DNA from: a virus
Direction: 5' to 3' (one strand)
IMG/VR virus record: IMGVR_UViG_3300028920_000027
Location: 1-64,000 of that record
DNA length: 64,000 nucleotides
Shown here: piece by piece, positions 7,471 through 59,434 of the stretch
How positions within the stretch are numbered: the first letter of the stretch is position 1
How the letters are laid out: every line of letters starts with the position of its first letter
The notes under the pieces: model-generated
What the model was told of the DNA's origin: nothing
The model's input: only the letters and a program-made list of their open reading frames with translations
Databases searched by the model: none
Translations under genes and position numbers: made by a program

Positions 7471-7495
7471 AGTGACTTCATTTATCAAAGAATAT

Positions 7496-36745: not shown

Positions 36746-37007
36746 CAATGGGCTCTCCTTCCCCAGGCTTCGTCATCCGCCGGCCCTTCATGCGCTTCCC
36801 CCATGCTTTGACCAATCGAGATAGCAAAGAGACATGTCGAGGGTCCCCTGAGACCACCTTTTCCCAATGCCCTCCCAACCGACGGAAGACTCGCCGGATC
36901 ACGAGGTAGTCCCCCTTGAGCAGGGCACACTTCTCGCCGACGCTGTTGTCCACAAACTGTCGGATGGCACGGTTGGCGAACGCGAGGGGTTCGGGCCGAC
37001 GATCCAT
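36738..37007 (-). CDS. Small basic protein after terminase
   Basis: An 89-residue basic protein. ATG at 37007 overlaps the terminase stop by one base and has AGGAGAG upstream, so translation is probably coupled. The sequence is helical and Arg/Lys-rich (LVIRRVFRRLGG, VKAWGKRMKGRRMTK). No motif identifies it. A DNA-binding or packaging accessory is possible. Confidence 0.6.
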   Translation of the reverse strand: MDRRPEPLAFANRAIRQFVDNSVGEKCALLKGDYLVIRRVFRRLGGHWEKVVSGDPRHVSLLSRLVKAWGKRMKGRRMTKPGEGEPIDV

Positions 37008-40000
37008 CAACGCACTCTCCTAAGTCGGCTGGTCACGCGAGAAACGCTGCGGTGTTGGATGGATCGCCGCGTCTGATAGGTCCTAGTGGAGGCACCCGTT
37101 GAAGCATGGGGACGGTAGACTCCGCCGGTCGAAGTGACGGTCTTCTGATTCAGCATGGCTTCGGTACTCAGCCATACCGCGCGCACGAAAGCATCCGCCA
37201 TGTCATCGTGGGCTCCGGCCTTCTGAGGGGCTTCGACCAAGACAATGTTCTTGCTCACTACCCGGCGCTGAAGACTCAAAAGTTCAGCAATGAAGGGGGA
37301 ATGCTTCACGGCGCCGTGCTCCGGAATCGGCCAGTCGTAGAGCACAAGACGCTCGTCGTACATCATCATCTTTGCGTTCTGATAGATCTTCGAGGTCATG
37401 TCGCGGGTGAAGAACTCGCTACGGAACTGCCTCAGCCCTCGCTTAACGAGCGATTGCTCCAAAGGGATGCCGTTCCAACGGTCGAACATCCCCGCGGTGG
37501 TGTGGAACCGTCGGCACAAGGCCACCACCCAATCGCTGATGGCATCGAAGTCGAGACGAGCCTCATCCTCCAACGTCTTGGCGTAGACGATCGGGTACTC
37601 TTCCCCCAAGTGGGGGTTGGTCTTACGCCAATTCTGCCCTGCGTACCAAGCTTCATGGTAGTCGAGCACGATGCGATCATTGTCGACGTGCGTGATGAAA
37701 ACCGACGTACCATCGCCCGCAAGACCGACGTCAATACCCATTTGGTGAGGCATCTTGGGGCGAGCCCGCATGACGGGGCGCCCCGCGGAGACAATGCACG
37801 CCTGGAGATCTTCAGCACGCTCCACCCACCCTTGAGCCTGATCGCTGAACTGGGCCCCATGTTCGGTGACAAACGTGGTCGGATCCGCGTGGTACTTCTG
37901 CTTGTAGTAGCTTGGGGGGACCGTCGGGTTGATTTCCCAAGTCGGCGCCTGAATGGCCAGGAGGTTCTCACTACCCTCACCCCCGTGCATCGCGAGGTCA
38001 AACAGCTCGAAAAACTTGCCACTGCGGCCCAGCGGGCTGGAGATGAGAATGATGCGTGATTCGACGGGGGCCCGCTCCCCTGTCACCTGGTCGACTATTG
38101 GAAGGCCGTTACGAGGGTCCTTGCGCGAGAACGCAGCCGTGGACGGAGTTACCGCGTCATAGATCTCCTTCGCCGAGCTAAGGCCCTTGTCCTTGAAGTG
38201 GGCCACTTCGTCGAGGATGACGACAACGTTACCCGAACCACGAAGGCCCTTGGCAATACATGACTTGAAGGTGACCCTCAACGTTGCCTTACCGTTGAGG
38301 GTCGTGAACTTGCCCGCGTCGGTCCGCAGCGTGGGCCCGAACTTGTCGATGTCGTAGGGCGTGCGGAAGTTGACGTGGCTCAAAGTATTGTTGCCAATGT
38401 AGGGTTGGAAGTAGTCACACTTGGCAACATGTGTCGTCACTTCATTGTAGAGCAAAGACGCCTGGTCCTTGTCGGTCGCGACGCTGATGATCTGGATGCG
38501 GTTGCCGTTCGGCAAACCGTAGTACTCCTGGGGGTTGTGCAAGTTGAGTAGGCGGTAGACTTCGTAGCTGGCGAAGATGCCAGAGAGTGTCGTGTTGTGG
38601 TTGGTGAGGCCGTTTGCCACGAACGATGCACCCTCAGGAACGGTCAAGTCATATACTTGGTGCTCTCCTACAGCCAACTCCGCGACGGGATCGTAGAAAT
38701 AGTCAAGCTCCAGAAGATGTTCGAAATGTGCTCGTTCCTTCGCCGCGACACCAAGCTCTGAAGCTACCGCCAGAGCCTTCTTGAGGCGTGGGTAGGACAG
38801 TTTCTCCTCAGACCCTGGCTTACAGGAGTTTCCAAACGCCTGTCTCAGACGACTACGCCCCCACCCTTTCTCACCACGTGCCGGATTACGCTTGGGCACA
38901 GCTTCCAAGAGATTCCTGACGTGCCTATACTGATGAGGTAGGCTTTCTGTGTCGGACTTGCCCTCCTGAGCCGTCTCCAGAGCCGCCAACAAGGGGGCTT
39001 GCTTCTTCTCTGAATCAAAGCCTATGTGCTTGGCAAACAACTGCCGGGACCGAACACCCTTCAGACTGAGGTTGGCGTAGTGCCGTCGGGTCTTCTTGCT
39101 CCACTTCTTCGCGACGTTGGAGACGATGCCTAGGTTGAGCAGCAAAGTTTGAACGTCAGAGGCCAAGTCGAAGCTCGCCGTTGAGAGCGTAATGTAACAC
39201 CCCCCACCCTCAGCAGAACCGTCTGTTTCGAAGAGGCCTCGAAGAAACGCGCAGACCACTCTCTTAGGGGACCTGAAGATTGCCCAAGGGACTCTCTTAC
39301 CGTAGCGCCCCAGATCGTGGGACCAGCCGAGGTCATGAAGGAACTGACGTGCTCCCACACCGGGGAACTCTAGTCGCCCTGTGTTCTGAGTGCGCTTGTC
39401 CATCTGGACGCGCCAAGACCCAAAAAGGCGCTCAAATAGGGCCTTCAGATAGGACCAGATCTCGTCGTGCTCGACAGTGACAGCAACGCCTTGGGTGTGC
39501 CCCCAAGATCCATCACCCACGAGATACCCCAATAGATTCCCCCAGGACTCGTCGAGGGTATCCGGAAATTGAACGTCTTTGCACCCACGGTCGTTATGGA
39601 AGGGCCGCACATCGAGCGGTTCTGAAGCCCACAAGTCGGTGCCCCGATGCACTGCTAGGAAGTCACCGAGCTGAAGCTCGTCCAGATAACGCCAGGCTAC
39701 GACCCCATCCGAAGTCATGACCTTCACTCGATGGTTGCCTGTACCCGTGATGGCGTACCCAGAAGCGGTCCGTGCCGTCACGGTTGGTTTCACGCCCCCA
39801 TTATAAAAATGAGATGAGCGTGCCTTGACGGTTCCTTCCTGGGCGACACCAACATCAAGTTCGCTGAATTCTTCCTCAGGAGCCCCCCCAAGAGCTTCGA
39901 TAGGGAAAAGACCCTTGTCCGTGAGGATCAGGGTGCCTCCTTCAACGCACTTTCCCGCACGCCTCCCAATGGGTAGAATCAGCTCGCGGCGCGGGTGGTC

Positions 40001-40351
40001 CTGCTCCCCAATATTGCACCGACCCTCATTGTACAAGTAGCGCAGGTACTCGACCTCGGTGAACTCGTAGAGGACCTTGGTGTTGAACATGTCCGTGACC
40101 CGGATGCGGCGATCCGGGTCTTCGGGCAGCTCGCCATCAAGCTCCAGGTAATAGTAGAGCTTGACGATGAACCGTTGCGCGGGGAATAGGCGCATCCCCA
40201 AGCCCCACGGGGACTCAATGTAGTCGAGAATGGTACAGGTCTGAGCGCGGCCATCTTCCTCGACTTGACCCGCTGCCTTCTGCTCTTCCTTGACCTGCTG
40301 ACCAGCTTTTCTGACCAGCTCAGAGAGGTCGGGCCCCCTGGATGCTGCCAA
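37007..40351 (-). CDS. terL: Terminase large subunit precursor containing an intein
   Basis: A 1114-residue precursor with a TTG start at 40351 supported by GAGGTGA. Removing the intein (residues 135-586) leaves 662 residues. The ATPase Walker A is rebuilt across the splice as GRRAGK/TT. Walker B is VVVILDE at about 709-715. The C-terminal nuclease shows the expected acidic residues in G-I-D-V-G-L-A-G-D-G, the F-D-R-W-N-G segment and H-D-D-M-A-D-A. It packages DNA into the prohead through the portal and cuts the concatemer. It follows the probable small terminase gene by three bases. Confidence 0.93.
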   Translation of the reverse strand: MAASRGPDLSELVRKAGQQVKEEQKAAGQVEEDGRAQTCTILDYIESPWGLGMRLFPAQRFIVKLYYYLELDGELPEDPDRRIRVTDMFNTKVLYEFTEVEYLRYLYNEGRCNIGEQDHPRRELILPIGRRAGKCVEGGTLILTDKGLFPIEALGGAPEEEFSELDVGVAQEGTVKARSSHFYNGGVKPTVTARTASGYAITGTGNHRVKVMTSDGVVAWRYLDELQLGDFLAVHRGTDLWASEPLDVRPFHNDRGCKDVQFPDTLDESWGNLLGYLVGDGSWGHTQGVAVTVEHDEIWSYLKALFERLFGSWRVQMDKRTQNTGRLEFPGVGARQFLHDLGWSHDLGRYGKRVPWAIFRSPKRVVCAFLRGLFETDGSAEGGGCYITLSTASFDLASDVQTLLLNLGIVSNVAKKWSKKTRRHYANLSLKGVRSRQLFAKHIGFDSEKKQAPLLAALETAQEGKSDTESLPHQYRHVRNLLEAVPKRNPARGEKGWGRSRLRQAFGNSCKPGSEEKLSYPRLKKALAVASELGVAAKERAHFEHLLELDYFYDPVAELAVGEHQVYDLTVPEGASFVANGLTNHNTTLSGIFASYEVYRLLNLHNPQEYYGLPNGNRIQIISVATDKDQASLLYNEVTTHVAKCDYFQPYIGNNTLSHVNFRTPYDIDKFGPTLRTDAGKFTTLNGKATLRVTFKSCIAKGLRGSGNVVVILDEVAHFKDKGLSSAKEIYDAVTPSTAAFSRKDPRNGLPIVDQVTGERAPVESRIILISSPLGRSGKFFELFDLAMHGGEGSENLLAIQAPTWEINPTVPPSYYKQKYHADPTTFVTEHGAQFSDQAQGWVERAEDLQACIVSAGRPVMRARPKMPHQMGIDVGLAGDGTSVFITHVDNDRIVLDYHEAWYAGQNWRKTNPHLGEEYPIVYAKTLEDEARLDFDAISDWVVALCRRFHTTAGMFDRWNGIPLEQSLVKRGLRQFRSEFFTRDMTSKIYQNAKMMMYDERLVLYDWPIPEHGAVKHSPFIAELLSLQRRVVSKNIVLVEAPQKAGAHDDMADAFVRAVWLSTEAMLNQKTVTSTGGVYRPHASTGASTRTYQTRRSIQHRSVSRVTSRLRRVR
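38594..39949 (-). mobile_element. Intein with LAGLIDADG endonuclease in terL
   Basis: A 452-residue in-frame insertion. It starts at Cys135 (CVEGGTLILTDKGLFPIEAL), has a block B-like GTGNHRVKV, and ends in NGLTNHN followed by Thr+1. Two LAGLIDADG motifs are intact (LLGYLVGDGSW near 273-283 and LRGLFETDGSA near 370-380), so it is a full homing intein. It interrupts the codons between Lys and Thr of Walker A. It is homologous to the DnaX intein in this window, with similar C-terminal segments (HFEHLLELDYFYDP against HFKHLLDTGYYFDP). Confidence 0.95.
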
Positions 40352-46260: not shown

Positions 46261-46541
46261 TCGGGGTGGATCTTGACACCGTGCCCGCCCCAGTCAGGAT
46301 AGTTGCTGCTCTTGAGGTTGAGGCAGCGGTCTTTCATAGCAAGCCAAACGTTGTGCTCGGGTGTGTGGCTCATACCGTGCTTGAAGTTGGTACGGTGCCC
46401 CCTGCGTACGGGGCGCAGATCGACACCCTGACCCCACTTGCTCTGGGCCCGTTGGTTGTTGTTCTGCTCGAGTACCGTTGCCCAGCGCACGTTTCCGGGC
46501 TCGTAGTTGCCGTTGACGTCCTTGCGGTCAAAAACACTCAT
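46203..46541 (-). pseudogene. Scrambled HNH homing endonuclease remnant
   Basis: A 112-codon frame from ATG 46541, overlapping the sigma-like gene's end. Typical phage HNH endonucleases read, in order, S-x-T-P-E-x-x-x-W-x-x-M-x-x-R-C ... Y-x-x-x-G-G-x-G-V ... W-x-x-x-F ... then D-R-x-D-x-x-G-N-Y-E-P-G-N-x-R-W-A-T ... Q-N-x-N. Here the second part (DRKDVNGNYEPGNVRWAT) comes first and the first part (SHTPEHNVWLAMKDRC, DWGGHGVKIHPEW) comes after it, then the frame ends. This looks like the junction left after deletion between two tandem copies. It is probably inactive. Confidence 0.65.
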
Positions 46542-47280
46542 CTCCCCCACGCCCGCTCCATTGGGGCAATTTCACCTCGCGAAGAATGTTAAAGCGCTTC
46601 ATCCGTATAGTACTGAAAATCTGTTCATACGGCTTGAGGGTCTCGTCGTCGGAGGCCATTTCGGTCAGCCTGTCCACAGCCTTGAAGAACCTGTGCCTAA
46701 CTCGGCCCTGGGTAAGGCACAAGCGCTTGGCGACCTCGCTCTGGCAAGTCGTCGCCCACATCCCGACAAGGATTTCAACGTCCACCTGTATGGTCCCAAC
46801 ACCCCGACAAATGGGACAGTCCTCACCCTTGCAGCCCTGGGGGCAGTGGACCTGGCTGGGGAACACCCTAGCCAGGTCCCGTCGCATCTCTTCCTCAGCC
46901 ACCTGAGGGATGCTCAAGAGGAACTTGATGCGCTTGATCCCACGGTCGAGCCGATAACTAATGGCCGCCTGTGTCACCCCGAAAATGGTGGCAATATCAG
47001 CCTGGCGCTTCCCGTGGACGAAATAGAGGTAGATAAGGTCGGCTTCTCGTTCAGGAATGCGTTCGAGCAACGGGGCGACCCGGGCCTCGTAGTCTTCGGT
47101 CGCCGAAAATAACTCTGCGATGTCTTCAGGGTCGACAGGATTACCTTCGTCGTCAAAGACATACTCTGGGTCCTCGTCGTCATTGGCAGCCTCTTCATCC
47201 CATGGGTGAACTACATCTATCGGATTGCTGAATCGTTGGGCCAATTCATGGGGGTCCACTGGAATGATGTATGCTGCCAT
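46528..47280 (-). CDS. Sigma-factor-like transcription regulator
   Basis: ATG at 47280 is preferred (GAGG upstream; the longer frame to 47355 is unnatural), giving 250 residues. Residues 71-122 resemble sigma-70 region 4: P-E-R-E-A-D-L-I-Y-L-Y-F-V-H-G, then the HTH R-Q-A-D-I-A-T-I-F-G-V-T-Q-A-A-I-S-Y-R. Residues 146-158 form a Cys cluster (CPQGCKGEDCPIC). Residues 176-205 are a second HTH-like segment (QSEVAKRLCLTQGRVRHRF). The first 60 residues are acidic. Sigma regions 2 and 3 are not obvious, so it may be a partial sigma or an activator. It is encoded just ahead of the structural genes, suggesting late-gene control. Confidence 0.72.
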   Translation of the reverse strand: MAAYIIPVDPHELAQRFSNPIDVVHPWDEEAANDDEDPEYVFDDEGNPVDPEDIAELFSATEDYEARVAPLLERIPEREADLIYLYFVHGKRQADIATIFGVTQAAISYRLDRGIKRIKFLLSIPQVAEEEMRRDLARVFPSQVHCPQGCKGEDCPICRGVGTIQVDVEILVGMWATTCQSEVAKRLCLTQGRVRHRFFKAVDRLTEMASDDETLKPYEQIFSTIRMKRFNILREVKLPQWSGRGGDECF

Positions 47281-49117
47281 TCTCGATCCTCGGCCCCAAC
47301 AGGGCATCCAGAATGGGGTCGGGGTTGACCCCAATCTCCCGCAGTCGGGAGGCAATACGATCTACATCTTCATCTGGGTTTGTGAGAAAGACAGTAACGT
47401 TTTGAAGGGTCATCAACTCGACGTTGAGAGTCACCTGCGGCTTAGCAGTTTGAAGCTGCTCGTACTGCCGCCCGGAGAGCCCGGCCAACCCCGACTTGAA
47501 AACCCCCTCCACGGTCCCGTGTGTCCGGACAAGATCCCTGAGGACTTTCTTTGGTACTCTGGCAACTCCTGGGATCTCATCGGACGTATCTCCGCAAAGA
47601 GCCCTAAGCTGTACCATTGAACTTGGAAGTACCCCAAACAGTTTCTCAACATCGGCCGGAGAGGTGAACTCCAACTCCTTCCGACCCCCAACTGCTGGCT
47701 GCAAAACATGGGTCGTCAGGGTCACCAACTGAAGCAGGTCGTTGTCGGTGGAGAAGACGACGTTGACCTGACCCTTCAGATGATCGCGCGTCAGGGTTGC
47801 AATAACATCATCGGCCTCGGCCTCCGGATTGATGCCCTGATAGACCCCCAGAGCCGGAAGGATCTCCATCAAATAGTCGATCTGGTTGAAGCCCCTGTCA
47901 GAACTGGAAAATTTTGACATCCTCGATTGACGCTTTGCCTTATACCCCGGAAAAGCGTCCTTCCGGCTCTGGGACGACCCCGGAGCGTCCCAGGCGACAT
48001 ACAGCCGCGCGTTGGGGTACCGCTTGCGTAGAGAACCTAACCCTCGCAAAAAACCGAAGATCACGCCCGTCGGGCGTCCCAACTCATCGGTCAAGTCCTT
48101 CAAATTGGGTGCGTGTAGGCACCTGTAGGCCAAGTTCATCCCATCCACGATGACGTTCTGAGTCACATCGCCTCCATCCAGTTGTGCAACCTGCTGAGCC
48201 AGCCGATCGCAAGCGTCCACAAGCCGTTGGAATCTTTCCAGGACCCCCTGCATCCACGCCAACTCCACGATGACGTTCTCGATACCTGCCACCTTCCGAC
48301 CCAAGAAGTCTGTCTGATAGAAGGTTACAAACGACCACAATCTGCGACCCTTAACTACCCACTCTCCCAGCTGCTCGAACTCCGCCATGCTACTGTTGCA
48401 GTGCACAACGAGGGCGTCAGATGCGTTCGCGACTAGCGACCAAAGACGGCAACCCCGAAACTGCCAGTCAGCGAACCGCGAGTAATCCCCCCACGCCTCC
48501 TTCAACGGCAACAGGGGCTGGTCCTCCCAGGTCAGGTAGGGTCGCGCGTGCATCAGCCATTCGCGCAACCGCGAGACGTGGTGTGCCATGGGAGACCCAG
48601 GAGCACGCTCGATGACCTTCAGGAAGGTTCGCGGCAACGTAAGCAGACTTTGCTTACTCCGTAATTGAACGTAAACCTGAACCTTTCCCTGCTCAGGAAT
48701 GTCGGCGACGACTTGTGCCGGAATCGACTGATAGGGGCCTTTGACGATCTCCACAGTGTCGCCAATACAAATCCCCTGGTCGGCCTCGATGCGTACCTGA
48801 CGCTTCAGACGCTCGACATCTGCATCGGTCACGGTCGACAAGCGACGATCTTTCCCATTACCCTCCGCCAAAAGGCTCTGCACGTAACGGGAACCTTCGA
48901 GCTTGAGGTAGGCCGCGTCCTCGTGGTCGCGGCGCACGAAAGCGTACCCGTCCATCAAGTAGCGAACGACCCGGTCCTCCCCAATCTGGGTGATGCTCGC
49001 AGGAATGAATACCTCCCCCTCCCCCCCAATAACTCGTAGGATGGACTTCGAGATCTCGTCAGGATCCTCAGACTCCCCGCGCAGGCTAAGCTCCAGAACT
49101 ACCCAATCAGTTGGCAT
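47246..49117 (-). CDS. NusG-like (NGN-KOW) domain fused to 5'-3' flap exonuclease
   Basis: ATG at 49117 (GAGGAG upstream, 11-base overlap with dnaX) gives 623 residues. Residues 1-110 resemble the NusG NGN domain (MPTDWVVLELSL, G-E-V-F-I-P, L-M-D-G-Y-A-F-V-R). Residues 117-170 form a KOW domain (GDTVEIVKGPYQSIPAQVV, K-V-Q-V-Y-V-Q-L). A 150-residue Trp-rich linker follows. Residues 320-615 are a FEN/Pol I-type 5' nuclease with D325, D377, R385/K386, Y392/K395, E434-D436-D437, D457/D459 and a helix-hairpin-helix with D510 and D513. The nuclease would remove primers or resect flaps. The NusG part would contact RNA polymerase. I know of no standard protein with this architecture. Confidence 0.82.
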   Translation of the reverse strand: MPTDWVVLELSLRGESEDPDEISKSILRVIGGEGEVFIPASITQIGEDRVVRYLMDGYAFVRRDHEDAAYLKLEGSRYVQSLLAEGNGKDRRLSTVTDADVERLKRQVRIEADQGICIGDTVEIVKGPYQSIPAQVVADIPEQGKVQVYVQLRSKQSLLTLPRTFLKVIERAPGSPMAHHVSRLREWLMHARPYLTWEDQPLLPLKEAWGDYSRFADWQFRGCRLWSLVANASDALVVHCNSSMAEFEQLGEWVVKGRRLWSFVTFYQTDFLGRKVAGIENVIVELAWMQGVLERFQRLVDACDRLAQQVAQLDGGDVTQNVIVDGMNLAYRCLHAPNLKDLTDELGRPTGVIFGFLRGLGSLRKRYPNARLYVAWDAPGSSQSRKDAFPGYKAKRQSRMSKFSSSDRGFNQIDYLMEILPALGVYQGINPEAEADDVIATLTRDHLKGQVNVVFSTDNDLLQLVTLTTHVLQPAVGGRKELEFTSPADVEKLFGVLPSSMVQLRALCGDTSDEIPGVARVPKKVLRDLVRTHGTVEGVFKSGLAGLSGRQYEQLQTAKPQVTLNVELMTLQNVTVFLTNPDEDVDRIASRLREIGVNPDPILDALLGPRIENGSIHHSSGPP

Positions 49118-51881
49118 CGCTCCTCGGGCTGGAAGTACGGACCAAGTACGCCTGGTGAGCGCGCCGCCACTCGGTGGGAGGGAGGAGTCGAAGCCCGCCG
49201 GGGACGCTCTGACGAGGAATCTCAACCTGGGGTGGCGGTTTCCGCTCATGACCCCGAGGTCGTTGGTGAGGCACTCCTTGCTCATCCAACGTCGTCAACG
49301 CCGCAAAGTCATTGCTCCCAAGTGAACCGATCCCATCTGGGCGACCGTGGGCCGGCATGGCAAGCGGCGGTGGAGGCTTGGGGGACTCCTGCTCTGGAGC
49401 CTCGCTCTCCACCTCCGCAGACGCCACAGGAGCAGAAATGGGGGCTGTGGCCTCCACTGGGGAAGGAGGTAATGCCAGAGGGGCTACAACTTGAAGGACC
49501 ATGGGCTGTGAGGGCACGACCGCTGTTTGAGGTATGCCACCACCCCCGGAAAGTGCAACGACGTCACACACCAACCCTGCCTTGGTCACGTGACGCACAC
49601 GCAAAAAGTACTCAGCCAGCTTCGTTACATTGTCCTTGAAAAGACTATACACCTGTTTGGCGAGACCCCGATCCATCAAACTGAAAGGCGCATGCATCTT
49701 GTAGGCGAGCCGATAGCTATTCATGGCCGCCTCGGCGAGGCCCGCGGCAACGTCGTCAGGGTCCAGAGTACCGCATAAATCGTCTACGATCCTGGCAGCC
49801 TCCCCAGGTTGACCCAGAGACAGGAGCACCTTGTAGTACTGAGTGACAGCATCGAGCCTGAGGTATGTTCGAGCCGACTCCAAGGATACAGGTCCAAGCT
49901 GGGCGATCATTTCGAGCTTGTTCAAGATGTCTCGAACATGGCCCTGCGAATGATCGATGACCACCAACAGGGCGTCATCCTCGTACTCAACCTTTTCAGC
50001 CTCCAAGATCTTCCTGAGCCTGACCTGGACATCATCGCGCGTGATGGGGCGCATAATGTGCTCCTCGCACCGTGACCGGATCGTGGAGCGGATCTTGTTG
50101 CCTTCGGTGGTGCAGAGGATGGCAACGAACCTCTTGTCTTCAATGGGCTTGAGCAGTACGTCCTGCGAGTCGCGGCTCATGCGGTGCATTTCGTCAAAAA
50201 CAATGACGCGCTTGGCGGCCCCCGGGACGTTAAACGCCAACTCATCGACGATGCGTCGAACGTTATCGATGGTGCCCGAGCTAGCGGCGTCCAACTCCTT
50301 GTAGGCCACCGAGGCTTCAGTCAACTGGGCTTGGCAGTTGTCGCAGCTGTTACAGGGCTCGCTCCCCCCTTGAAGGTCTTGGCAGAGCAGTGCCCGGGCC
50401 AGGATGCGAGCCAGGGTCGTGTTGTGGTTCATGAACCCCCCAGCTGCAAACATCTCTTGTCCAGGGACCGAAAGGTCAAACACTTCTGCCCGGCCCGGAG
50501 ATGTTTCGATTACCGGATCGAAGTAGTACCCTGTATCCAGCAAGTGCTTGAAGTGGGCATACCCAGGGCACCCTTTGAACTCGCTGACAATGCGCTGGAC
50601 CTGGCGATCCGTACACGACACACGCCCCCTCCGTGCCTGGAAGAAGTGGCTGGTGTCATGAGTCCGCAACTCAGAAGAAAGGCTCTCATAGAAGAAACGT
50701 AGGTGGGCCGCTTGGTAGGGCACCACTTCGTAAGTATTGGATAGTTGACGGCGACCCTTAGCGTGTCCACGAACGAGAGACCGTTGTAGCTGGCCCCGCT
50801 TTCGAGCCGAAAGAAAACCTACCTTGGACGCGAACACGTCGAGGGATGAGCGCCGAATACCGACCCTCCAGTAGACCCCGTACTCCGGATGGGGCTTGGG
50901 GCGCCGATAGGCCACCACCCCTAAATTCAACAACATCGCCTGCACCTGACGAGCGAGCTTAGGGCTCTTGGTGAGGGCCTCTACTCGGTACCCCGAGACG
51001 CTACCGTCACACTCAAAGTAACCTCGCAGAAACTCGCAAACGAGATGCTCAGGGGAGACCCTGATGGACCATGGCATTTCCTTCCCGCCAGCCTTCGCAT
51101 AGGAAACCCCGAGGAATGCCAGAAAATCCCTGAACTGAACACTGCTGCATCGAACCGCAACGAGACCTGGGCGCCGTTTGTCTGGTGAAATGAAACTCCC
51201 CCCGCCCAGGCGGTCTAAAAGACGCCTGGCATCATCCACGGTATCAGGCTCAGCTGTATGGACCGAGACACTTGTCCTACTCGTGCATGAACCGTCCCCT
51301 GCCAGATAGCCCAGCAACCGTGCCCACTCCAAGCTCAGGGTAGTCGGGGGGTTGAAGTCATGGCTGCTATGGTCATGGGGTCGTTTCGCGTAGGAGTAAC
51401 CCTCAATCAAAGGCCCTGTGCCAAAAAGTCCTGTCCCTCGCGAAAGGCACGCATAATCACCTTTGCGCACTTGACCTATCTCCCTCCACTCAATCTCACC
51501 CGATTTAGCCAGGATCTTGATGCGATGGTGGGGGGTCCCTTCGATGAAGAAGCCCAAACTAGTCTTGATGCGAACTGTGTCCCGGACCCCACCTCGATAC
51601 GAGAAAGCTGCCTCACCCACCCCCTGTTCTTGCCCAACGACAATATGCACAGGGTCGACGACATGGGGCCCACCCATAAGGTCTCCTATTTCGAGCAAAC
51701 CACGGTTCGTAGGGACCAAGGTCTCCTTAGACACACACTTCCCACGCCCGTGCCCGCCCGAGAAGATGTAGCTCGTGTCCAGGGCAGTCCCATTCTTCAA
51801 GCGCTGCTTGAGCACCTGGACAGGGCCCTCCTGCCCTAGCACGTCACCAAAAACGCGAGGTCGATACTTGATATCCCACAC
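49107..51881 (-). CDS. dnaX: DnaX-like clamp loader (gamma/tau) precursor containing an intein
   Basis: A 924-residue precursor with a GTG start at 51881 (GAGGTC upstream). Without the intein (49-487) it has 485 residues. It starts WDIKYRPRVFGDVLGQ, as in DnaX. Walker A is GGHGRGK/TT across the splice. A zinc module C-x8-C-x2-C-x2-C (CQDLQGGSEPCNSCDNC) follows, then V-I-V-F-D-E-M-H-R-M (Walker B), T-T-E and sensor-1-like S-R-C. The C-terminus is Pro-rich. Clamp loaders open the sliding clamp (here 54929-56173) onto primed DNA. The presence of both suggests a phage-encoded bacterial-type replisome, although no polymerase is in the window. Confidence 0.92.
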   Translation of the reverse strand: MWDIKYRPRVFGDVLGQEGPVQVLKQRLKNGTALDTSYIFSGGHGRGKCVSKETLVPTNRGLLEIGDLMGGPHVVDPVHIVVGQEQGVGEAAFSYRGGVRDTVRIKTSLGFFIEGTPHHRIKILAKSGEIEWREIGQVRKGDYACLSRGTGLFGTGPLIEGYSYAKRPHDHSSHDFNPPTTLSLEWARLLGYLAGDGSCTSRTSVSVHTAEPDTVDDARRLLDRLGGGSFISPDKRRPGLVAVRCSSVQFRDFLAFLGVSYAKAGGKEMPWSIRVSPEHLVCEFLRGYFECDGSVSGYRVEALTKSPKLARQVQAMLLNLGVVAYRRPKPHPEYGVYWRVGIRRSSLDVFASKVGFLSARKRGQLQRSLVRGHAKGRRQLSNTYEVVPYQAAHLRFFYESLSSELRTHDTSHFFQARRGRVSCTDRQVQRIVSEFKGCPGYAHFKHLLDTGYYFDPVIETSPGRAEVFDLSVPGQEMFAAGGFMNHNTTLARILARALLCQDLQGGSEPCNSCDNCQAQLTEASVAYKELDAASSGTIDNVRRIVDELAFNVPGAAKRVIVFDEMHRMSRDSQDVLLKPIEDKRFVAILCTTEGNKIRSTIRSRCEEHIMRPITRDDVQVRLRKILEAEKVEYEDDALLVVIDHSQGHVRDILNKLEMIAQLGPVSLESARTYLRLDAVTQYYKVLLSLGQPGEAARIVDDLCGTLDPDDVAAGLAEAAMNSYRLAYKMHAPFSLMDRGLAKQVYSLFKDNVTKLAEYFLRVRHVTKAGLVCDVVALSGGGGIPQTAVVPSQPMVLQVVAPLALPPSPVEATAPISAPVASAEVESEAPEQESPKPPPPLAMPAHGRPDGIGSLGSNDFAALTTLDEQGVPHQRPRGHERKPPPQVEIPRQSVPGGLRLLPPTEWRRAHQAYLVRTSSPRSDAN
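50421..51737 (-). mobile_element. Intein with LAGLIDADG endonuclease in dnaX
   Basis: A 439-residue in-frame insertion starting at Cys49 (CVSKETLVPTNRGLLEIGDL), with block B-like GTPHHRIKIL, two LAGLIDADG motifs (LLGYLAGDGSC near 189-199 and LRGYFECDGSV near 285-295) and the end GGFMNHN before Thr+1. It lies between Lys and Thr of Walker A, the same place as in terL. Segments near the end (FKHLLDTGYYFDPVIE) match the terL intein. Confidence 0.95.
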
Positions 51882-51895
51882 AGGCCGACCTCTGG

Positions 51896-52393
51896 TTACT
51901 CGGTCAAGGTTAAGAGATCATTGATCTTGACATCTTCAGCTGAGGTCTCTTCCTCGATGATCTCTTCTATTTGGATGGCCTTGGCTACATTGACGAACCC
52001 TTCGAGGCCCGGATGCCACGCACCATACCGTTCCAGAATCGTGGCGAACTCGCTAACGTCGGGTTCGCGAGTGCTCCACTTCATTTCCCCGGATTTCTCG
52101 TCTTCCTGACCACAGCACCGTTCCAATAAATGATCGACTAGTGCCGTCCGTTGGTCGGCGTCCAATTCGTTCCAGCTGTCAAGGCCAACTTCGATGATGA
52201 AGGTCTTATTCGTGAGCCAGGTCAAGAAGGGGCTGCACTTCTTGACCGTGCCCAGAATGGTCTTACCATTCCTGACGCTGGACTTGTCGACGAACACCCA
52301 CAGGATGGCCGCATCGGCCAACTCCGCGTGGTAGTTTGCAATCAGATTACTCGCGATCTGTCCCATCGCGTCACCGGGTTCATAGGTCTTCAT
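51896..52393 (-). CDS. Phage metallopeptidase-like protein with altered active site
   Basis: ATG at 52393 gives 165 residues. The layout resembles the putative phage metallopeptidase family: L-A-D-A-A-I-L-W-V-F, a G-K-T-I-L-G-T-V-K-K strand, D-S-W-N-E-L-D-A-D-Q-R-T-A-L-V-D-H and a conserved later motif R-E-P-D-V-S-E-F-A-T-I-L-E-R-Y-G. In the family the sequence after Asp-His is usually D-H-E-L-x-H; here it is DHLLERC, lacking the second metal His and the catalytic Glu. The protein may therefore be a non-enzymatic relative. It lies between primase and dnaX. Confidence 0.6.
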   Translation of the reverse strand: MKTYEPGDAMGQIASNLIANYHAELADAAILWVFVDKSSVRNGKTILGTVKKCSPFLTWLTNKTFIIEVGLDSWNELDADQRTALVDHLLERCCGQEDEKSGEMKWSTREPDVSEFATILERYGAWHPGLEGFVNVAKAIQIEEIIEEETSAEDVKINDLLTLTE

Positions 52394-52396
52394 CAA

Positions 52397-53104
52397 TCAC
52401 ACCACTAGGTTGGGGTCCAATCCTTCCATGAATACACCAAATCGCTCATCTCCCCAAGCTTCCCAAAGATCTCCCCAGTCCTTGGACAGCTTACTCTCTC
52501 CCTCAGGCGCAGCCATGGGTACGGCAGGGGGTAGGGCCACTTCGATACGCTCGAACTCGTCTTGGTGATCCCGACGGAAGGCGTAGGCTACCTTGCGACC
52601 CGTCTCGTCGTTGTCGTAGCCGATCCACACCTGATCGACCATTCGGTGCAAAATCCTGAGTAAATCAGGGGAAATCCCTGCCTTAAGCGTAGCCACCACC
52701 TCAGGGTAGGTCCGTTGGACCGGGCACAGGTCGAACACCCCCTCGACCAACCAGATCCGGTTGCTCTGCCAGATGTGTGGCATGGCCTGATGTAGCCCGA
52801 AGAGGACCGCCTCGTCCCCTTCAAGTAAGTAGTCCATGTAGCCCTTGCGGACGATGGGGCGGAACTGAATGCCCTTGACTTGCCCTACCGAGTTCGTCAA
52901 CGGGAAAACCCAGACCCGGTTCAGGCGGTGCTTCTCAGCCCACCTGGCAAACCCAGGCGGCAAGCCCTCAGGCATCTCGTCCAGGTAGCCAACGTGGTAA
53001 AAGTCAATCTGCTCATCGGTCATGCCCCGACGCCACAAGCGGAAACGAAGGTCCTCGTCGAGCTGTTGCTCGGCGTGCTGCACCAGGCCGTCAATCCAGG
53101 TCAT
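52397..53104 (-). CDS. Short TOPRIM primase
   Basis: A 235-residue protein starting at ATG 53104, overlapping the upstream gene by 14 bases. The N-terminal half matches the catalytic core of DnaG-type primases (DFYHVGYLDEMPEGLPPGFA, R-V-W-V-F-P-L-T-N-S-V-G-Q-V-K-G-I-Q-F-R). The TOPRIM follows with I-W-L-V-E-G-V-F-D (catalytic Glu) and G-Y-D-N-D-E-T-G-R (metal-binding Asp pair). There is no zinc finger and no helicase domain, so it is reduced. It would make RNA primers together with the phage replisome. Confidence 0.8.
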   Translation of the reverse strand: MTWIDGLVQHAEQQLDEDLRFRLWRRGMTDEQIDFYHVGYLDEMPEGLPPGFARWAEKHRLNRVWVFPLTNSVGQVKGIQFRPIVRKGYMDYLLEGDEAVLFGLHQAMPHIWQSNRIWLVEGVFDLCPVQRTYPEVVATLKAGISPDLLRILHRMVDQVWIGYDNDETGRKVAYAFRRDHQDEFERIEVALPPAVPMAAPEGESKLSKDWGDLWEAWGDERFGVFMEGLDPNLVV

Positions 53105-53705
53105 TGACCACCATCACCGCGCGGCCAATGCGAGTCACCATCAACCCCACGCGGTCATCAACCCGCGAATAAATCCCCGCCAAACCTGGTGCCGCCAAGA
53201 GTAGAATCACGCCAGGAGGGCCCGGTAACACTTGAAGCCCACCCTCGATCTCCGCCACACACCCCATCGTCAACACCAACTCATCAATGGACTTGCCGTC
53301 CAAACCTGGACAAATGGGGGCCATCCTGTCACGCGCCAAGACCAGGTACCGAGGCTGGTAACCTTGACTCGTCATTGCAGCCACCGCAGCCTTTAGAGTC
53401 ATCTGATACGCCCCGGGAAATGGCGACCTGGAAGGGCGCGAGGCTCCCTCTATGATCCGAGCTTGTAAACCAACCAGCAGCTTCGACTCATCCTCCAAGC
53501 TGCACTCGCTGAACGCGAACCGAACGCGGCCGTTCCGTATGCCAGGTTGGACAGCCATCCCCCTCATATTGGTGACCAGAATCGGAAGGTCTTCGGAAGT
53601 AACCCTTCGTTCCGATATCACAGGGGTGGCAAACCCGCCCCCGTGAGCAATGCTGGCAGCCTGTCGTCGGTTTCGCTCGACATGAAAAATGCGTTCAAGA
53701 GTCAT
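53091..53705 (-). CDS. Unknown protein between primase and clamp modules
   Basis: A 204-residue protein starting at ATG 53705 with an 11-base overlap with the previous gene. The N-terminus is helical and basic (LERIFHVERNRRQAASIAHG). The rest alternates strands and turns (PILVTNMRGMAVQPGIRNG, VLPGPPGVILLLAAPG) and ends GLMVTRIGRAVMVVNDLD. It is encoded in the replication cluster. I recognise no family. Confidence 0.6.
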   Translation of the reverse strand: MTLERIFHVERNRRQAASIAHGGGFATPVISERRVTSEDLPILVTNMRGMAVQPGIRNGRVRFAFSECSLEDESKLLVGLQARIIEGASRPSRSPFPGAYQMTLKAAVAAMTSQGYQPRYLVLARDRMAPICPGLDGKSIDELVLTMGCVAEIEGGLQVLPGPPGVILLLAAPGLAGIYSRVDDRVGLMVTRIGRAVMVVNDLD

Positions 53706-54288
53706 GGGACCTCTCCGCGAGCTGTTTCAATTGATCAGCTCCGTACCCCTCCAGCAGCTTGATGGGGTCCTCCTGCACTTTCATCGGGGGGTGGATGTCA
53801 ACCTTGGCGAAGAACAAAAACCAAACTCTCTTCCACCAGGGCATCTGATCAACATAAGGAGCCACGATTTGACCCAAGACCCATAGCAACTCATGGACCT
53901 CGGGCAGATGCTTCTTCAGCCAATCAGCGTCGTTGACGTTCCGACGGAACTCAGCAAAAACCTCCTCCTTTTTGAGAGACTGGACCGGCTCGAACTTACC
54001 ACATCTCTGAGCGTCGACCGGTTCATCACAGAGGTCCCCTGGCCACGTCTCGCTGTCCTCGGACCCGTACATGCAAAGCCCTATCTCTTGAACGACTGGC
54101 AACCCCCCGGCCGCCGTGATGCGGTTATAGCTGGGGTTGGGGCCCCCCTCGACGGTCTTGCGGTAGTCGAGGGAATGACGCTGATTGAAGCGACAGTGCT
54201 GGGGTAGGCGTGGAATGGACAGCCGCCGCATCAGCTCGCTGAACAACAGCGCTCGAACTCGGTCCTCGATCTCCTTTAAATTTCGCAT
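53695..54288 (-). CDS. Conserved-looking Cys/His protein of unknown function
   Basis: A 197-residue protein starting at ATG 54288. It contains R-L-P-Q-H-C-R-F-N-Q-R-H, then G-L-C-M-Y-G-S-E-D-S-E-T-W-P-G-D-L-C and D-A-Q-R-C, a Cys/His set that could bind zinc. This pattern recalls proteins of unknown role in the replication regions of other large phages. A W-W-K-R-V-W-F-L-F-F segment is moderately hydrophobic. Gene placement between rad50-C and primase suggests a replication or recombination accessory. Confidence 0.6.
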   Translation of the reverse strand: MRNLKEIEDRVRALLFSELMRRLSIPRLPQHCRFNQRHSLDYRKTVEGGPNPSYNRITAAGGLPVVQEIGLCMYGSEDSETWPGDLCDEPVDAQRCGKFEPVQSLKKEEVFAEFRRNVNDADWLKKHLPEVHELLWVLGQIVAPYVDQMPWWKRVWFLFFAKVDIHPPMKVQEDPIKLLEGYGADQLKQLAERSHDS

Positions 54289-54290
54289 TA

Positions 54291-54965
54291 TCAGGCACCC
54301 CTCAGGGTCAGGTGCCGACGGCCACCCTCGACGACCTCGACACAGCGGTAAGCTCGGTTGGCGTGCGTGACGTAACCTTGCTTGTGAGTGACCAGCAGCA
54401 CGTCGATGCCGGTCTCCTTGGCGAGCTGGCGAAGAAAGTGCCCAGTACGCTCAACGTACTCTTCACTGACGGCGCCCAAGCTTTCGTCAAGAACCAGTAT
54501 GGGGATTCGCTTGAGCTTGACCATCGTCATCAAGCGAATGATAAGCGAAGCCACACTACAAGGCCCGCCCCCGAACGAATCCAGGGGCTTGCCTCGAATG
54601 CTCAAGGGGTTCTCGGGCTTACCCTCCCTGATGTAGAACTCGATCCAGACCTTGCCATGCTTAGGCACCAGCTCGGCCTCGAAGCTCAGGTCAAGATCAT
54701 GGAAAATAGCTTCCAAACCTTCTCCCACGATCTTGCGCAGTGCCTCAACCTGATCGTTGATGAGCAAGTCCATGAGCTTGCGGAGGCCCTGCCCCGTTTG
54801 ATCGAGCATCAAGCTTTGGTGGTCGAGGTGATCAATCTGCTTCCGGATCTGGGATCCTTGTGTACGAAGGCGGTCCCGTAACGTCACCAGACGCTCGGCC
54901 TTCAACTCCAACTGACGGAGTCGAGCGATCAATCCCGAGAGGGCATGAAGCGTGTCACTTGACAC
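54291..54965 (-). CDS. Rad50/SbcC-like ATPase, C-terminal half
   Basis: A 224-residue protein with a GTG start at 54965 (AAGG upstream), overlapping the clamp gene by 37 bases. Residues 8-75 are a coiled coil. The globular part has the ABC signature SFGGGPCSVASL (130-141), Walker B IPILVLDES (154-162) and the H-loop LVTHK (191-195). There is no Walker A. The missing N-terminal half, with Walker A and a CxxC hook, is encoded 4.5 kb upstream at 59434-60783. The two products must pair to make an active ATPase that works with the Mre11/SbcD nuclease. Confidence 0.85.
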   Translation of the reverse strand: MSSDTLHALSGLIARLRQLELKAERLVTLRDRLRTQGSQIRKQIDHLDHQSLMLDQTGQGLRKLMDLLINDQVEALRKIVGEGLEAIFHDLDLSFEAELVPKHGKVWIEFYIREGKPENPLSIRGKPLDSFGGGPCSVASLIIRLMTMVKLKRIPILVLDESLGAVSEEYVERTGHFLRQLAKETGIDVLLVTHKQGYVTHANRAYRCVEVVEGGRRHLTLRGA

Positions 54966-56173
54966 AAGTGCGCCTTATTCTCATCGTCCTGTCCTATAAG
55001 GACCTGACCGTTGTCATCGAGCCAGAATTCGTCGATGGTGCGGAAGGTCGCAACCTTCTTCTTACCCTTGGGCGCCAAGATTGCAACTCGAAGCTCGATC
55101 TCATGAGCCTTGACGGGGTTCACCAGGTCGAGAAGGTGGTTGACGTTGGCATTGATGGCAAAGCCATCCTCCCCTTCGACAGGGTCAACCCCCACGGGCA
55201 CGACCCCCACGGGCACGCTGTTAGCCACATTGGTACCCCCATCGCTCGCCACAAAACGGAGACTGGATTCGGAACTCGTATAGATCACCCGAATCTTGTC
55301 GAGCTTGGGGTCCAACTCGGCACGAGCATACTTCAACGCCTTTACCAGGAAGGTGCGGGGGGCCCGCAAGATGTACTTGTCGGCCTTGAGTGGGTAATAG
55401 CTGAATTTCCCATGCTCCCTCTCATGCTTGGCGCACCCCAATATAGCCCCTTCAGAGTTGACGAAGTAGACCATATTCGGAGCCGTCAAAACCTTGACCA
55501 TTCCCGACGAGTGGGACAAAAACGACAGGATCTGGGGCAGATGTTGCACCCCGAGTCCAAGACCCTTGTCTTTGAACGCCTCGCAATAAAAGTAGAACGC
55601 GCAGACGCCCGTGGCAGCGAATAGGAAGCCATTACCCTTAGCCCACTCCTCCTTCGAGGAATCAAAGATCTGGAACGTCTGAAAGTGCTCGTTCTCGTCA
55701 CGAGCGGCACTGCTCTTGGCCAGGTATGGTTTAGCCAAGGTAAGAGCCTCCCTAAGGACGGCGATAGGGTACTCCCGCTCACCCTCAGCGTCGGACAAGT
55801 CACAGGGACTCATAAAGCGGGCCTCAAATGATGTCTTCTTGCTGGAGGCTCCGCCCTCGGTCTCGTAGGAGACCGAGCATTCCTCGGGATTCGACGAGAA
55901 CTCAATCCACCCGTCAAGGCACTGGAGCGCGCCAACCTGATTGGCAGGGTAGATGAAGCTCCCCTCCCCTCGCACGTCCTCGACTTCAAGGGCCGCTCGT
56001 GACGTGTGGAATTGATCACGAGAATGCACCTCACACTTACCGTCCTTGATGACAAACAAGTACCCCGCCCCTCCCTGGGGAGTCACCGAGGAGGGGGTTA
56101 CAATCCCAACCAACCTCAACACGGCATGGAGGTGTGTCGCCTGTGTGCGAAACGTGATGTTGCTCATACTCAT
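54929..56173 (-). CDS. Sliding clamp, DnaN-like
   Basis: A 414-residue protein starting at ATG 56173 (ATGA overlap). Length and pattern fit a three-domain beta clamp: an F-R-T-Q-A-T-H-L-H-A-V-L-R-L-V start, K-D-G-K-C-E-V-H-S-R-D, and the C-terminal V-L-I-G-Q-D-D...Q-V-T-R-F-M-P-S-R, the usual clamp ending. A small repeat (VPVGV) lies near residues 320-330. It would tether the polymerase and be loaded by the DnaX complex. The call rests on the end motif and context; internal domains are too diverged to mark exactly. Confidence 0.75.
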   Translation of the reverse strand: MSMSNITFRTQATHLHAVLRLVGIVTPSSVTPQGGAGYLFVIKDGKCEVHSRDQFHTSRAALEVEDVRGEGSFIYPANQVGALQCLDGWIEFSSNPEECSVSYETEGGASSKKTSFEARFMSPCDLSDAEGEREYPIAVLREALTLAKPYLAKSSAARDENEHFQTFQIFDSSKEEWAKGNGFLFAATGVCAFYFYCEAFKDKGLGLGVQHLPQILSFLSHSSGMVKVLTAPNMVYFVNSEGAILGCAKHEREHGKFSYYPLKADKYILRAPRTFLVKALKYARAELDPKLDKIRVIYTSSESSLRFVASDGGTNVANSVPVGVVPVGVDPVEGEDGFAINANVNHLLDLVNPVKAHEIELRVAILAPKGKKKVATFRTIDEFWLDDNGQVLIGQDDENKAHLCQVTRFMPSRD

Positions 56174-57367: not shown

Positions 57368-59434
57368 CTACTTCTTCCTCGCGCGGGCACGCTCTAGATA
57401 CTCCAGAATCAAGCTGGAGACTTCCTGACTCACGTCCAGCGACCCGATGTTGTCCTCCAGGGACGCCGATGTGTCCAAATCCTGCTGCTGTCGCAGCGAC
57501 CGCGCAAACTCCTCGATGACCTCCTGACGCTGCTCCTGCCGATCTTTCTTCTCCAGGTCGAACACCTCACTGGCAGGGGGTACCCGCAGGGGGACCTCTT
57601 GGGCGCTGATCCCGCTGAAGTTCGTCTGGAGGATCGCAACCTTAGGGACCCGAGTCAGATTCTCCTTAACCAGAGCGCCACGACTGAGAGCGCCCAGGTT
57701 GACGAAGGTCTTCCCGCCAACCTTCACGATCCCCTGGTCGATGTGCCAATGCCCAAAGCAGTTGTGTACCAGCAAACCCCCAGCAACGTACTGCTCTGAA
57801 CTGGTTCGGAAGTTGTGGACGGGCCCCTTGTAGGCGACGTCGCATATTTCAGTGATCCTTGCATAATACAAGCCCTCATGGAAGAAGCCGGACACACGGG
57901 TTTTCTGACGCTCTGGGGGCCTAATCCCCATGCGAGAGGCTAACTCGCAACCAGAGTCCCCATAGAAGGCCACAATGTGGCAGGGGTGGTTCTGGTGCTG
58001 TTTAGGAGGACACACTTGGAAGCAGGGGCGCCAGCCCACAGACAGAGCCAGGAAGAACAATTGGAAAGCCAGTTTCCGAGAAGCTGTAGCCCCCGCAACC
58101 TCTACCTTGGTCGACCTGGCATGCCCATCCCCCAACAGCCAGCCAAGCAGAAGCTCCTTACGATCAATAGTCGGACGTTCCCATACCCAAGCAGAGACCT
58201 CTTTTTGGTCTGAATAGCGGCCGCCGTGCTCTTTGAAAAAGGCGGTGATGTTGAGACCGTAGGCGCACAGTTGGATGCAGTTGGGGTTATCTGGGTGCGC
58301 GTGCTCATGAACGGTCAAACCGAAGTGACGCTTCACAAGAGTCTTGACGTCGAGGTGTAAGGCATGTTCGAGAATATGAAAACTCCAGCCAACACCGGCT
58401 ACAGGGGCGCCCTTGCGATTGTTGATCAAGTGCCCCTCAGCAAGATAATAACCTAGTAGTCGAGACAGTCCTGCATACGAACGAGCCTCCGTGGGAACTG
58501 AAGGAACGGGCACCCCCAAGTAGTCACCCTTAACAAGGCTTCCTGCGGCGCACCAAGTGGGCTCCACGAAAGGCTTGTCAGTGCAACTACTACAGGGCGC
58601 TGATGAGGCCGTCTTATCTGGGTAACAACGGCGATTAACCTTGGCGGCCCAGAAGGGGTGTTCTGACGTAACACCTTCAACGAGCGGAGGTAGCCCCTCG
58701 ACCTCGAAATGGATCAGAGGCTCATTCACTTGCCTTGGGGGGTGGACAGCCTCCACCACGGTCGACTTTGAGCCCGCCATGTGCTGGCCGACCTGCACGT
58801 CCTCAATGGGGATAGGTCGGTATAAGGCGTCCAGTACAGGTGTCTGTGGGGGAAAGCACCAGGCATCAGGGCCCCCTTCATAGACGAGATCCCTGTATCG
58901 GAAAACTGGCTCCCCAAAAAACTCCTCAACGCGGGTAGGCGGATTCTCAGCAGCAAGCTGGTGGACGATGGCTACCAAGTGCTCCCCGTCCTTCTTGTGT
59001 GCCTGCCGCAGCTCGTCGAGGGTACGGTTGGGGGCGTAGGGAAACCCCACCACGCGTACGCATTCGGGCCCCTCCCCAAACGTCACGTCCCGCAACTTCT
59101 TGAACACCCCCGCCTCGTAGAGGACGCCGATGGGTTGCCTATCCACAGTGTCGAGGTTGTTATGGGCCATGTCGTGGTTGCCCTCGACATGGTACACCGG
59201 ACAAGGATAACCAGCGTGTAGAGACGCCGTACGCGCTACCAAGGCGTGTGAATTGCGAGTGGCCGCCTTGACGTGGAAGTAGTCACCCCCATCGAGCACC
59301 GCCTCGACCGCTTGCTCTTCCGCGATGTGACCCACCTGAGTCAGCAGGTCCCACACCTCTGCCTGGTAGTCGCCCTTCCAACTCAAGGGGGAGCGATCTG
59401 ATACATGGCAATCGGTGCGGAACAGCAGCTTCAT
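57368..59434 (-). CDS. sbcD: Mre11/SbcD-like nuclease precursor containing an intein
   Basis: A 688-residue precursor starting at ATG 59434 (TGATG overlap). Removing residues 193-558 leaves 322. Metallophosphoesterase motifs are complete: T-D-C-H (residues 7-10), G-G-D-Y-F-H (49-54), V-E-G-N-H-D (83-88), I-V-H-Q-L (156-160), and C-F-G-H-W-H rebuilt at the splice site. The C-terminal region is a coiled coil that would contact Rad50. It processes DNA ends and hairpins with the split Rad50 encoded on either side. Confidence 0.93.
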   Translation of the reverse strand: MKLLFRTDCHVSDRSPLSWKGDYQAEVWDLLTQVGHIAEEQAVEAVLDGGDYFHVKAATRNSHALVARTASLHAGYPCPVYHVEGNHDMAHNNLDTVDRQPIGVLYEAGVFKKLRDVTFGEGPECVRVVGFPYAPNRTLDELRQAHKKDGEHLVAIVHQLAAENPPTRVEEFFGEPVFRYRDLVYEGGPDAWCFPPQTPVLDALYRPIPIEDVQVGQHMAGSKSTVVEAVHPPRQVNEPLIHFEVEGLPPLVEGVTSEHPFWAAKVNRRCYPDKTASSAPCSSCTDKPFVEPTWCAAGSLVKGDYLGVPVPSVPTEARSYAGLSRLLGYYLAEGHLINNRKGAPVAGVGWSFHILEHALHLDVKTLVKRHFGLTVHEHAHPDNPNCIQLCAYGLNITAFFKEHGGRYSDQKEVSAWVWERPTIDRKELLLGWLLGDGHARSTKVEVAGATASRKLAFQLFFLALSVGWRPCFQVCPPKQHQNHPCHIVAFYGDSGCELASRMGIRPPERQKTRVSGFFHEGLYYARITEICDVAYKGPVHNFRTSSEQYVAGGLLVHNCFGHWHIDQGIVKVGGKTFVNLGALSRGALVKENLTRVPKVAILQTNFSGISAQEVPLRVPPASEVFDLEKKDRQEQRQEVIEEFARSLRQQQDLDTSASLEDNIGSLDVSQEVSSLILEYLERARARKK
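57761..58858 (-). mobile_element. Intein with LAGLIDADG endonuclease in sbcD
   Basis: A 366-residue in-frame insertion from Cys193 (CFPPQTPVLDALYRPIPIED) to Asn558 (GGLLVHN), followed by Cys+1. Two LAGLIDADG motifs are seen (LLGYYLAEGHL near 327-336 and LLGWLLGDGHA near 429-439); the first has Glu instead of Asp. It also holds a cysteine set C270, C281-x2-C284, C295 that looks metal-binding. It splits the active-site motif just before Phe-Gly-His-Trp-His. It differs from the terL and dnaX inteins. Confidence 0.93.

What the first reader, a model, noticed from the sequence alone, without database searches (positions are those of the whole stretch)
47246..49117. NusG-like NGN-KOW module fused to a 5'-3' flap exonuclease
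One continuous frame encodes an N-terminal pair of domains matching NusG/Spt5 (NGN plus KOW, the KOW with GDTVEIVKGPY) and a C-terminal FEN/Pol I-type nuclease with all acidic active-site residues. NusG-family proteins bind RNA polymerase; flap nucleases act on DNA or RNA-primed flaps. A fusion would tether a nuclease to transcription, for example to clear R-loops or head-on conflicts or to link late transcription to replication. The next gene is a sigma-like factor, which strengthens the link to transcription.
Basis: partly seen in the sequence, partly recalled or inferred. Interest (0 to 1): 0.88.

Follow-up and report, generated by a model that had tools for sequence, protein, structure and literature searches.

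The report
Phage RfaH-like factor fused to nuclease
A lineage of giant bacterial viruses has joined a protein predicted to ride on the host's RNA polymerase to an enzyme that trims DNA/RNA 5' flaps during replication; distant relatives keep the same two as neighbouring separate genes, so the fusion is real and long-lived, but what the tether achieves is untested.

Summary
The fusion is real. One 623-aa ORF on the MINUS strand (ATG 49117, stop 47246) encodes NGN (1-112), KOW (115-170), a ~145-aa helical linker and an intact FEN/Pol I-type 5' nuclease (318-607). Profiles, AlphaFold/Foldseek and 76 non-redundant loci exclude an assembly error. 46 huge-phage loci carry the fusion; 18 have NGN-KOW and FEN as adjacent separate genes (2 of them apparently re-split); 12 have NGN-KOW and no FEN at the locus. 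The order clamp loader > NGN-KOW > FEN > sigma-r4-like gene persists. All 76 NGNs keep RNA-polymerase-facing residues, with RfaH's Phe instead of NusG's Leu; NusG's Rho-contact I-F-G is L-R-S in all fused members. No RNAP beta subunit was found, so host RNAP is the likely partner. FEN is the only one found in these phages, whose polymerase (where present) lacks a 5' nuclease. A start codon persists at the FEN boundary in nearly all fused genes, so free FEN may also be made; the Shine-Dalgarno-like signal there is not beyond what the amino acids force. Best reading: an RfaH-like antiterminator tethered to the phage's replication FEN. RNAP binding, nuclease activity and functional coupling are inferred, not shown.

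The parts
47246..49117 (-). NGN-KOW-linker-FEN fusion gene, 623 aa, ATG at 49117, TGA at 47248-47246
   Evidence: Single open frame; same fusion in 46 non-redundant loci
48782..49117 (-). NGN domain (residues 1-112)
   Evidence: Profile match to NusG, Foldseek NusG/RfaH/Spt5; W5, P39, Y58, F60 lie at E. coli NusG positions 9, 45, 68, 70 and are invariant in 76/76 loci
48608..48775 (-). KOW domain (residues 115-170); Rho-contact triplet I164-F165-G166 of NusG replaced by L152-R153-S154
   Evidence: Rho contact from PMC7593976
48170..48607 (-). Helical linker with Trp-marked ~31-36-aa repeats (W187, W218, W253, W288); 102-205 aa across fused loci
   Evidence: Low-confidence helices in AlphaFold; best internal repeat score 49 vs shuffle mean 17; lengths
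48164..48175 (-). Candidate internal FEN start: GGAGG (48175-48171) 4 nt before in-frame GTG (48166-48164)
   Evidence: Start codon at/near this position in 43/46 fused genes vs 32% of control windows; many separate FEN genes start within a few codons of the same place; SD strength not beyond synonymous expectation
47246..48166 (-). FEN / Pol I-type 5' nuclease module
   Evidence: PF02739 + PF01367, fold like M. smegmatis FEN 6c33-6c36, nine acidic residues
49107..51881 (-). Clamp-loader (DnaX/delta'-like) gene with LAGLIDADG intein, directly upstream, 11-nt overlap
   Evidence: Pfam; same neighbour in the first set of relatives
46528..47280 (-). Sigma-region-4-like double-HTH protein, directly downstream (overlaps the FEN end by 35 nt)
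   Evidence: PF04545, conserved neighbour
51896..56173 (-). Conserved upstream block: putative metallopeptidase, Toprim protein, two unknowns, SMC/Rad50-C-like, DnaN-like clamp candidate (54929-56173)
   Evidence: clamp assignment weak (E=0.0018 to DnaN)

Best explanation
A bifunctional huge-phage protein. Its N-terminal NGN-KOW module is an RfaH-like elongation/antitermination factor that docks on the beta' clamp helices of HOST RNA polymerase, displaces host NusG and does not recruit Rho, keeping long phage operons transcribed. Its C-terminal module is the phage's own flap 5' nuclease, supplying the primer-removal activity that the phage PolA-type polymerase lacks. In one large lineage the two formerly adjacent genes were fused through a ~100-200-aa helical linker, so the nuclease can be carried on transcribing polymerase to RNA 5' ends, R-loops or polymerase-replisome encounters. 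A retained start codon at the FEN boundary may also yield free FEN for ordinary replication. Shown: architecture, conservation, genomic history, catalytic and RNAP-facing residues. Inferred: RNAP binding, nuclease activity, co-localisation, internal initiation.
For: NGN-KOW by profile and fold. In 76/76 loci W9, P45 and Y68 are kept and position 70 is Phe, as in RfaH F56, which PMC7593976 reports as required for RNAP binding. Rho-contact F165-G166 became R-S in all fused members. No RNAP beta in 13 phage records, host RNAP implied. FEN catalytic residues invariant in 46/46 fused; exactly one FEN in each of the 7 FEN-bearing records searched. PolA found in related huge phages, without a 5' nuclease part. 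46 fused loci, and 16 distant adjacent-separate pairs in the same order. Start codon retained at the FEN boundary in 43/46 vs 32% of control windows.
Against: No direct evidence of RNAP binding, nuclease activity or coupling. Two members inside the fused clade are split (L057, L160) and a distant clade keeps separate genes, so fusion is not essential. 12 relatives have no FEN at the locus, so the NGN-KOW role does not need FEN. The SD-like signal at the internal start is explained by amino-acid composition. A PolA gene was not found in the window's own 182-kb record, which may be incomplete. The conserved RNAP-facing residues may also be structural core.
Confidence: 0.45

Rival explanations
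1. Two independent jobs on one polypeptide: the fusion only fixes co-expression and stoichiometry of an antiterminator and a replication FEN that never act together.
For: Same genes are separate, often overlapping by 4-8 nt, in a distant clade; secondary splits L057 and L160; linker variable in length and sequence; block-wide gene order is conserved anyway.
Against: Fusion and linker are retained in 46 of 48 members of a deeply divergent clade; translational coupling by stop-start overlap is already available to the unfused pair.
Confidence: 0.33
2. The fusion works with the sigma-r4-like protein and the clamp in a T4-like replication-coupled late-transcription complex, with FEN on DNA acting as the bridge between sliding clamp and RNAP.
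For: Clamp candidate, clamp loader, NGN-KOW-FEN and sigma-r4-like genes lie in one conserved block; T4 couples late transcription to its clamp through gp55/gp33 (PMC2988020).
Against: No clamp-binding epitope demonstrated; the FEN C-terminal 'ILETFF' motif coincides with the ordinary Pol I-FEN C-terminal helix (my reading); the clamp identity itself is weak.
Confidence: 0.12
3. The FEN module acts on nascent RNA at the polymerase (a nuclease steered by a NusG-family protein, like archaeal FttA with Spt5) rather than on replication flaps.
For: The Spt5-partnered FttA ribonuclease is a precedent (PMC11616081 abstract); FEN-family enzymes cut RNA-containing 5' substrates (established knowledge).
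Against: It is the only FEN found in phages whose polymerase lacks a 5' nuclease, which points to replication.
Confidence: 0.07
4. Assembly error joining two genes.
For: None found.
Against: 46 non-redundant fused loci from separate contigs.
Confidence: 0.003

Closest known systems
RfaH / NusG / Spt5 (NGN-KOW) transcription elongation factors
   Same: NGN+KOW order and fold; RNAP-facing W9/P45/Y68 kept; Phe at the RfaH F56 position; Rho-contact loop lost as in RfaH
   Different: Carries a helical linker and a nuclease; KOW modelled as a beta-barrel, no sign of RfaH's helical autoinhibited KOW; invariant R-S replaces F165-G166 in the fused clade
Pol I-type 5' nuclease / FEN (PF02739+PF01367), e.g. 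M. smegmatis FEN, T5 D15, Taq 5' nuclease
   Same: Fold and all nine acidic residues
   Different: Fused behind NGN-KOW instead of standing alone or preceding a polymerase
PHROG_6386 phage transcription antiterminators
   Same: All 18 scanned NGN-KOW members match
   Different: Match covers only the NGN-KOW half; no BFVD viral structure among the listed matches covered both halves
T4 late transcription (gp45 clamp, gp33, gp55)
   Same: Clamp/clamp-loader and sigma-like genes linked to a transcription factor acting on host RNAP
   Different: NGN-KOW is not gp33/gp55-like; no clamp epitope shown
Archaeal FttA-Spt5 termination complex
   Same: A nuclease working with a NusG-family factor at RNAP
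   Different: Separate proteins, a different nuclease family, termination role

Membership tests
NusG/Spt5 family | NGN domain | tested here: met
NusG/Spt5 family | KOW domain after NGN | tested here: met
NusG/Spt5 family | RNAP-facing hydrophobic residues | tested here: met
   W9, P45, Y68 positions 76/76; binding itself not tested
Housekeeping NusG | Rho-contact loop I164-F165-G166 | tested here: not met
   L-R-S in 46/46 fused; S at 166 in 76/76
RfaH subfamily | Phe at the F56 position | tested here: met
   F in 76/76
RfaH subfamily | KOW able to fold as a helical hairpin masking the NGN | tested here: inconclusive
   Model shows a beta-barrel KOW; fold switching cannot be judged from one model
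RfaH subfamily | Sequence-specific recruitment (ops-like) | not testable with these tools
   Needs transcription assays or binding data
FEN / Pol I 5' nuclease | PF02739 + PF01367 and nine metal-binding acidic residues | tested here: met
FEN / Pol I 5' nuclease | Flap cleavage activity | not testable with these tools
   Needs an enzyme assay
Sigma70 family (downstream gene) | Region 4 HTH | tested here: met
   PF04545 E=1.8e-13
Sigma70 family (downstream gene) | Region 2 | tested here: not met
   No region-2 match at E up to 10
T4-type clamp-coupled transcription | Clamp-binding epitope on the transcription factor | tested here: inconclusive
   Only a PIP-like resemblance, explained by FEN homology

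The most novel reading that the evidence does not exclude
A single phage gene makes two proteins: a full-length RNAP-riding flap nuclease that clears RNA/DNA 5' ends at transcription-replication encounters, and, from an in-frame internal start kept since the fusion, a free FEN for Okazaki maturation.
Probability: 0.3. Interest if true: 0.85.

Novelty: new variant of a known kind. Interest (0 to 1): 0.66.

Why it matters
It would be a direct physical link between an RNA-polymerase-bound elongation factor and a replication nuclease. The natural series (separate genes, fused, re-split, NGN-KOW with no FEN at the locus) makes the question of what the tether does experimentally testable, and it marks a family of RfaH-like factors in huge phages that appear to rely on host RNAP.

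Tried and rejected
Assembly error: rejected (46 non-redundant fused loci). Canonical sigma factor next door: only region-4-like HTHs. C-terminal PIP/clamp-binding motif in FEN ('ILETFF'): rejected, it aligns with the ordinary Pol I-FEN C-terminal helix (my reading plus family knowledge). Internal Shine-Dalgarno as proof of internal initiation: sharp peak by position but not beyond synonymous-codon expectation, so only the start-codon retention counts. L057 as an ancestral split: the tree puts it beside fused L122 with support 1.0 and its linker stays on the NGN side, so re-splitting is likelier; a one-base error in that single contig cannot be fully excluded. Literature searches for NusG in jumbo/huge phages found no papers, and broader NusG searches listed nothing whose title or abstract describes this fusion; the library is open-access only. 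Host assignment: one 3-kb contig in an Actinomycetota MAG is too little.

Full report
What is there. The finding's coordinates hold a 623-aa gene on the minus strand (ATG 49117 to TGA 47246) in a 182,335-bp IMG/VR virus record. It has four parts: NGN (1-112), KOW (115-170), a helical linker (171-316) and a FEN-type 5' nuclease (318-607). NGN-KOW is supported by phmmer to T. maritima NusG (1.2e-5), by a family profile (3.7e-11), by PHROG_6386 in 18/18 members, and by an AlphaFold model of mostly high confidence whose best PDB matches are NusG, RfaH and Spt5. Pfam NusG alone is sub-threshold for this member. The FEN half is PF02739 3e-29 / PF01367 2e-11, folds like M. smegmatis FEN and keeps all nine acidic residues. 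The linker is low-confidence helix with Trp-marked repeats.

Relatives. The phages collection held no full-length relative; its one NGN match was LR745208, a 485-kb uncultured phage. Scans with NGN and with the neighbouring sigma-like protein gave 98 loci (LR745208 included), classified with local HMMs. With the window added and duplicates removed, 46 are fused, 18 have both genes separate and 12 have NGN-KOW with no FEN at the locus. In six 166-485 kb records of the last group no FEN domain was found anywhere; the seven FEN-bearing records searched had exactly one each. The loci compared share the order clamp loader > NGN-KOW (> FEN) > sigma-r4-like, and in the first set also SMC, Toprim and metallopeptidase genes upstream, with a clamp candidate in the fused group. 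The clamp-loader neighbour was checked only in that first set.

History. A FastTree of NGN+FEN+sigma puts 16 separate-gene loci in one distant clade without the linker (2-7 aa after KOW), several with stop-start overlaps of 4 or 8 nt. The fused loci form another clade with linkers of 102-205 aa. Two members of that clade are split: L057 beside fused L122 (support 1.0) and L160. Both keep the linker on the NGN protein, as expected if they are fissions. The simplest history is adjacent genes, then one fusion, then two losses of the fusion. Whether the third group lost FEN or never had it depends on the root, which is not fixed (midpoint rooting).

RNAP side. Aligned with E. coli NusG, W9, P45 and Y68 are invariant in 76/76. 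Position 70 (Leu in NusG) is Phe in 76/76, the residue of RfaH F56 that PMC7593976 reports as needed for RNAP binding; the pairing of F56 with L70 follows that paper's statement that NusG has Leu there, and my knowledge of RfaH. The Rho-contact triplet I164-F165-G166 (same paper) is L-R-S in all fused members. The first NGN set was found with a pattern that includes the GYAF motif, but the sigma-based loci were not chosen on NGN and show the same. No RNAP beta domain was found in 13 records, so host RNAP is the expected partner. These are sequence inferences; binding was not tested.

Nuclease side. PolA-type polymerases occur in five related records as full domains; the five read show no 5' nuclease region, and no second FEN was found in any record searched. 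No DnaE-type polymerase was found. No PolA was found in the window's own record, which may be a fragment. That record encodes a NAD-type ligase (sequence read; assignment by eye). FEN as the phage's primer-removal enzyme is therefore the likeliest base function.

Possible second product. In 43/46 fused genes an in-frame ATG/GTG lies in the nine codons before the FEN core, against 32% of control windows; ATG alone 36/46 vs 16%; a start codon sits at exactly -3 in 32/46 vs 7.6%. Several separate FEN genes start at that same place. A Shine-Dalgarno-like signal peaks there, but synonymous-codon shuffling gives nearly the same strength (Wilcoxon p=0.066, Fisher 0.42), so the signal may just reflect the amino-acid make-up of the hinge. 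Sequences are related, so the counts are not independent trials. Internal initiation is plausible, not shown.

Interpretation. The tethering idea is plausible and supported by long retention of the fusion, but splits, separate-gene relatives and a possible free FEN product mean it is not established. I give 0.45 to an RfaH-like antiterminator tethered to a replication FEN with some functional coupling, 0.33 to mere co-expression.

Limits. The literature library is open-access only and the searches found nothing on this fusion. Among the BFVD matches listed, none spans both halves. Contigs are metagenomic, the host is unknown, the record is possibly incomplete, and only 80 of 178 sigma-based candidates were kept by the tool.

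Noticed in passing
G000 ~87.0-98.2 kb (L075 3044-14201): Array of 43 tRNA genes covering most amino acids.
   Followed up: no
L076 13628-13701 and 16214-16289 (G000 ~117.6 and ~120.2 kb): Two odd tRNA calls: a four-base anticodon (tcta) and a CUA (amber) anticodon, i.e. suppressor-like tRNAs.
   Followed up: no
window 37007-40351 and 49107-51881: Inteins (LAGLIDADG + splicing domains) in the terminase and in the clamp loader; the LR745208 clamp loader also has an insertion that reads like an intein, at another site.
   Followed up: partly
window 57368-59434: Calcineurin-like (Mre11-like) phosphoesterase whose middle reads like a further intein insertion; Pfam reported only the metallophosphatase.
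   Followed up: partly
window 22813-24720: LAGLIDADG endonuclease region and an N6/N4 DNA methylase in one frame.
   Followed up: partly
window 6610-7488: Patatin-like phospholipase (PF01734 E=7.5e-32) among virion-protein-like genes.
   Followed up: partly
L074 11353-12972: GroEL-like chaperonin ORF (by eye).
   Followed up: no
window 51896-52396: Putative phage metallopeptidase (PF18894) conserved upstream of the clamp loader in related phages.
   Followed up: partly
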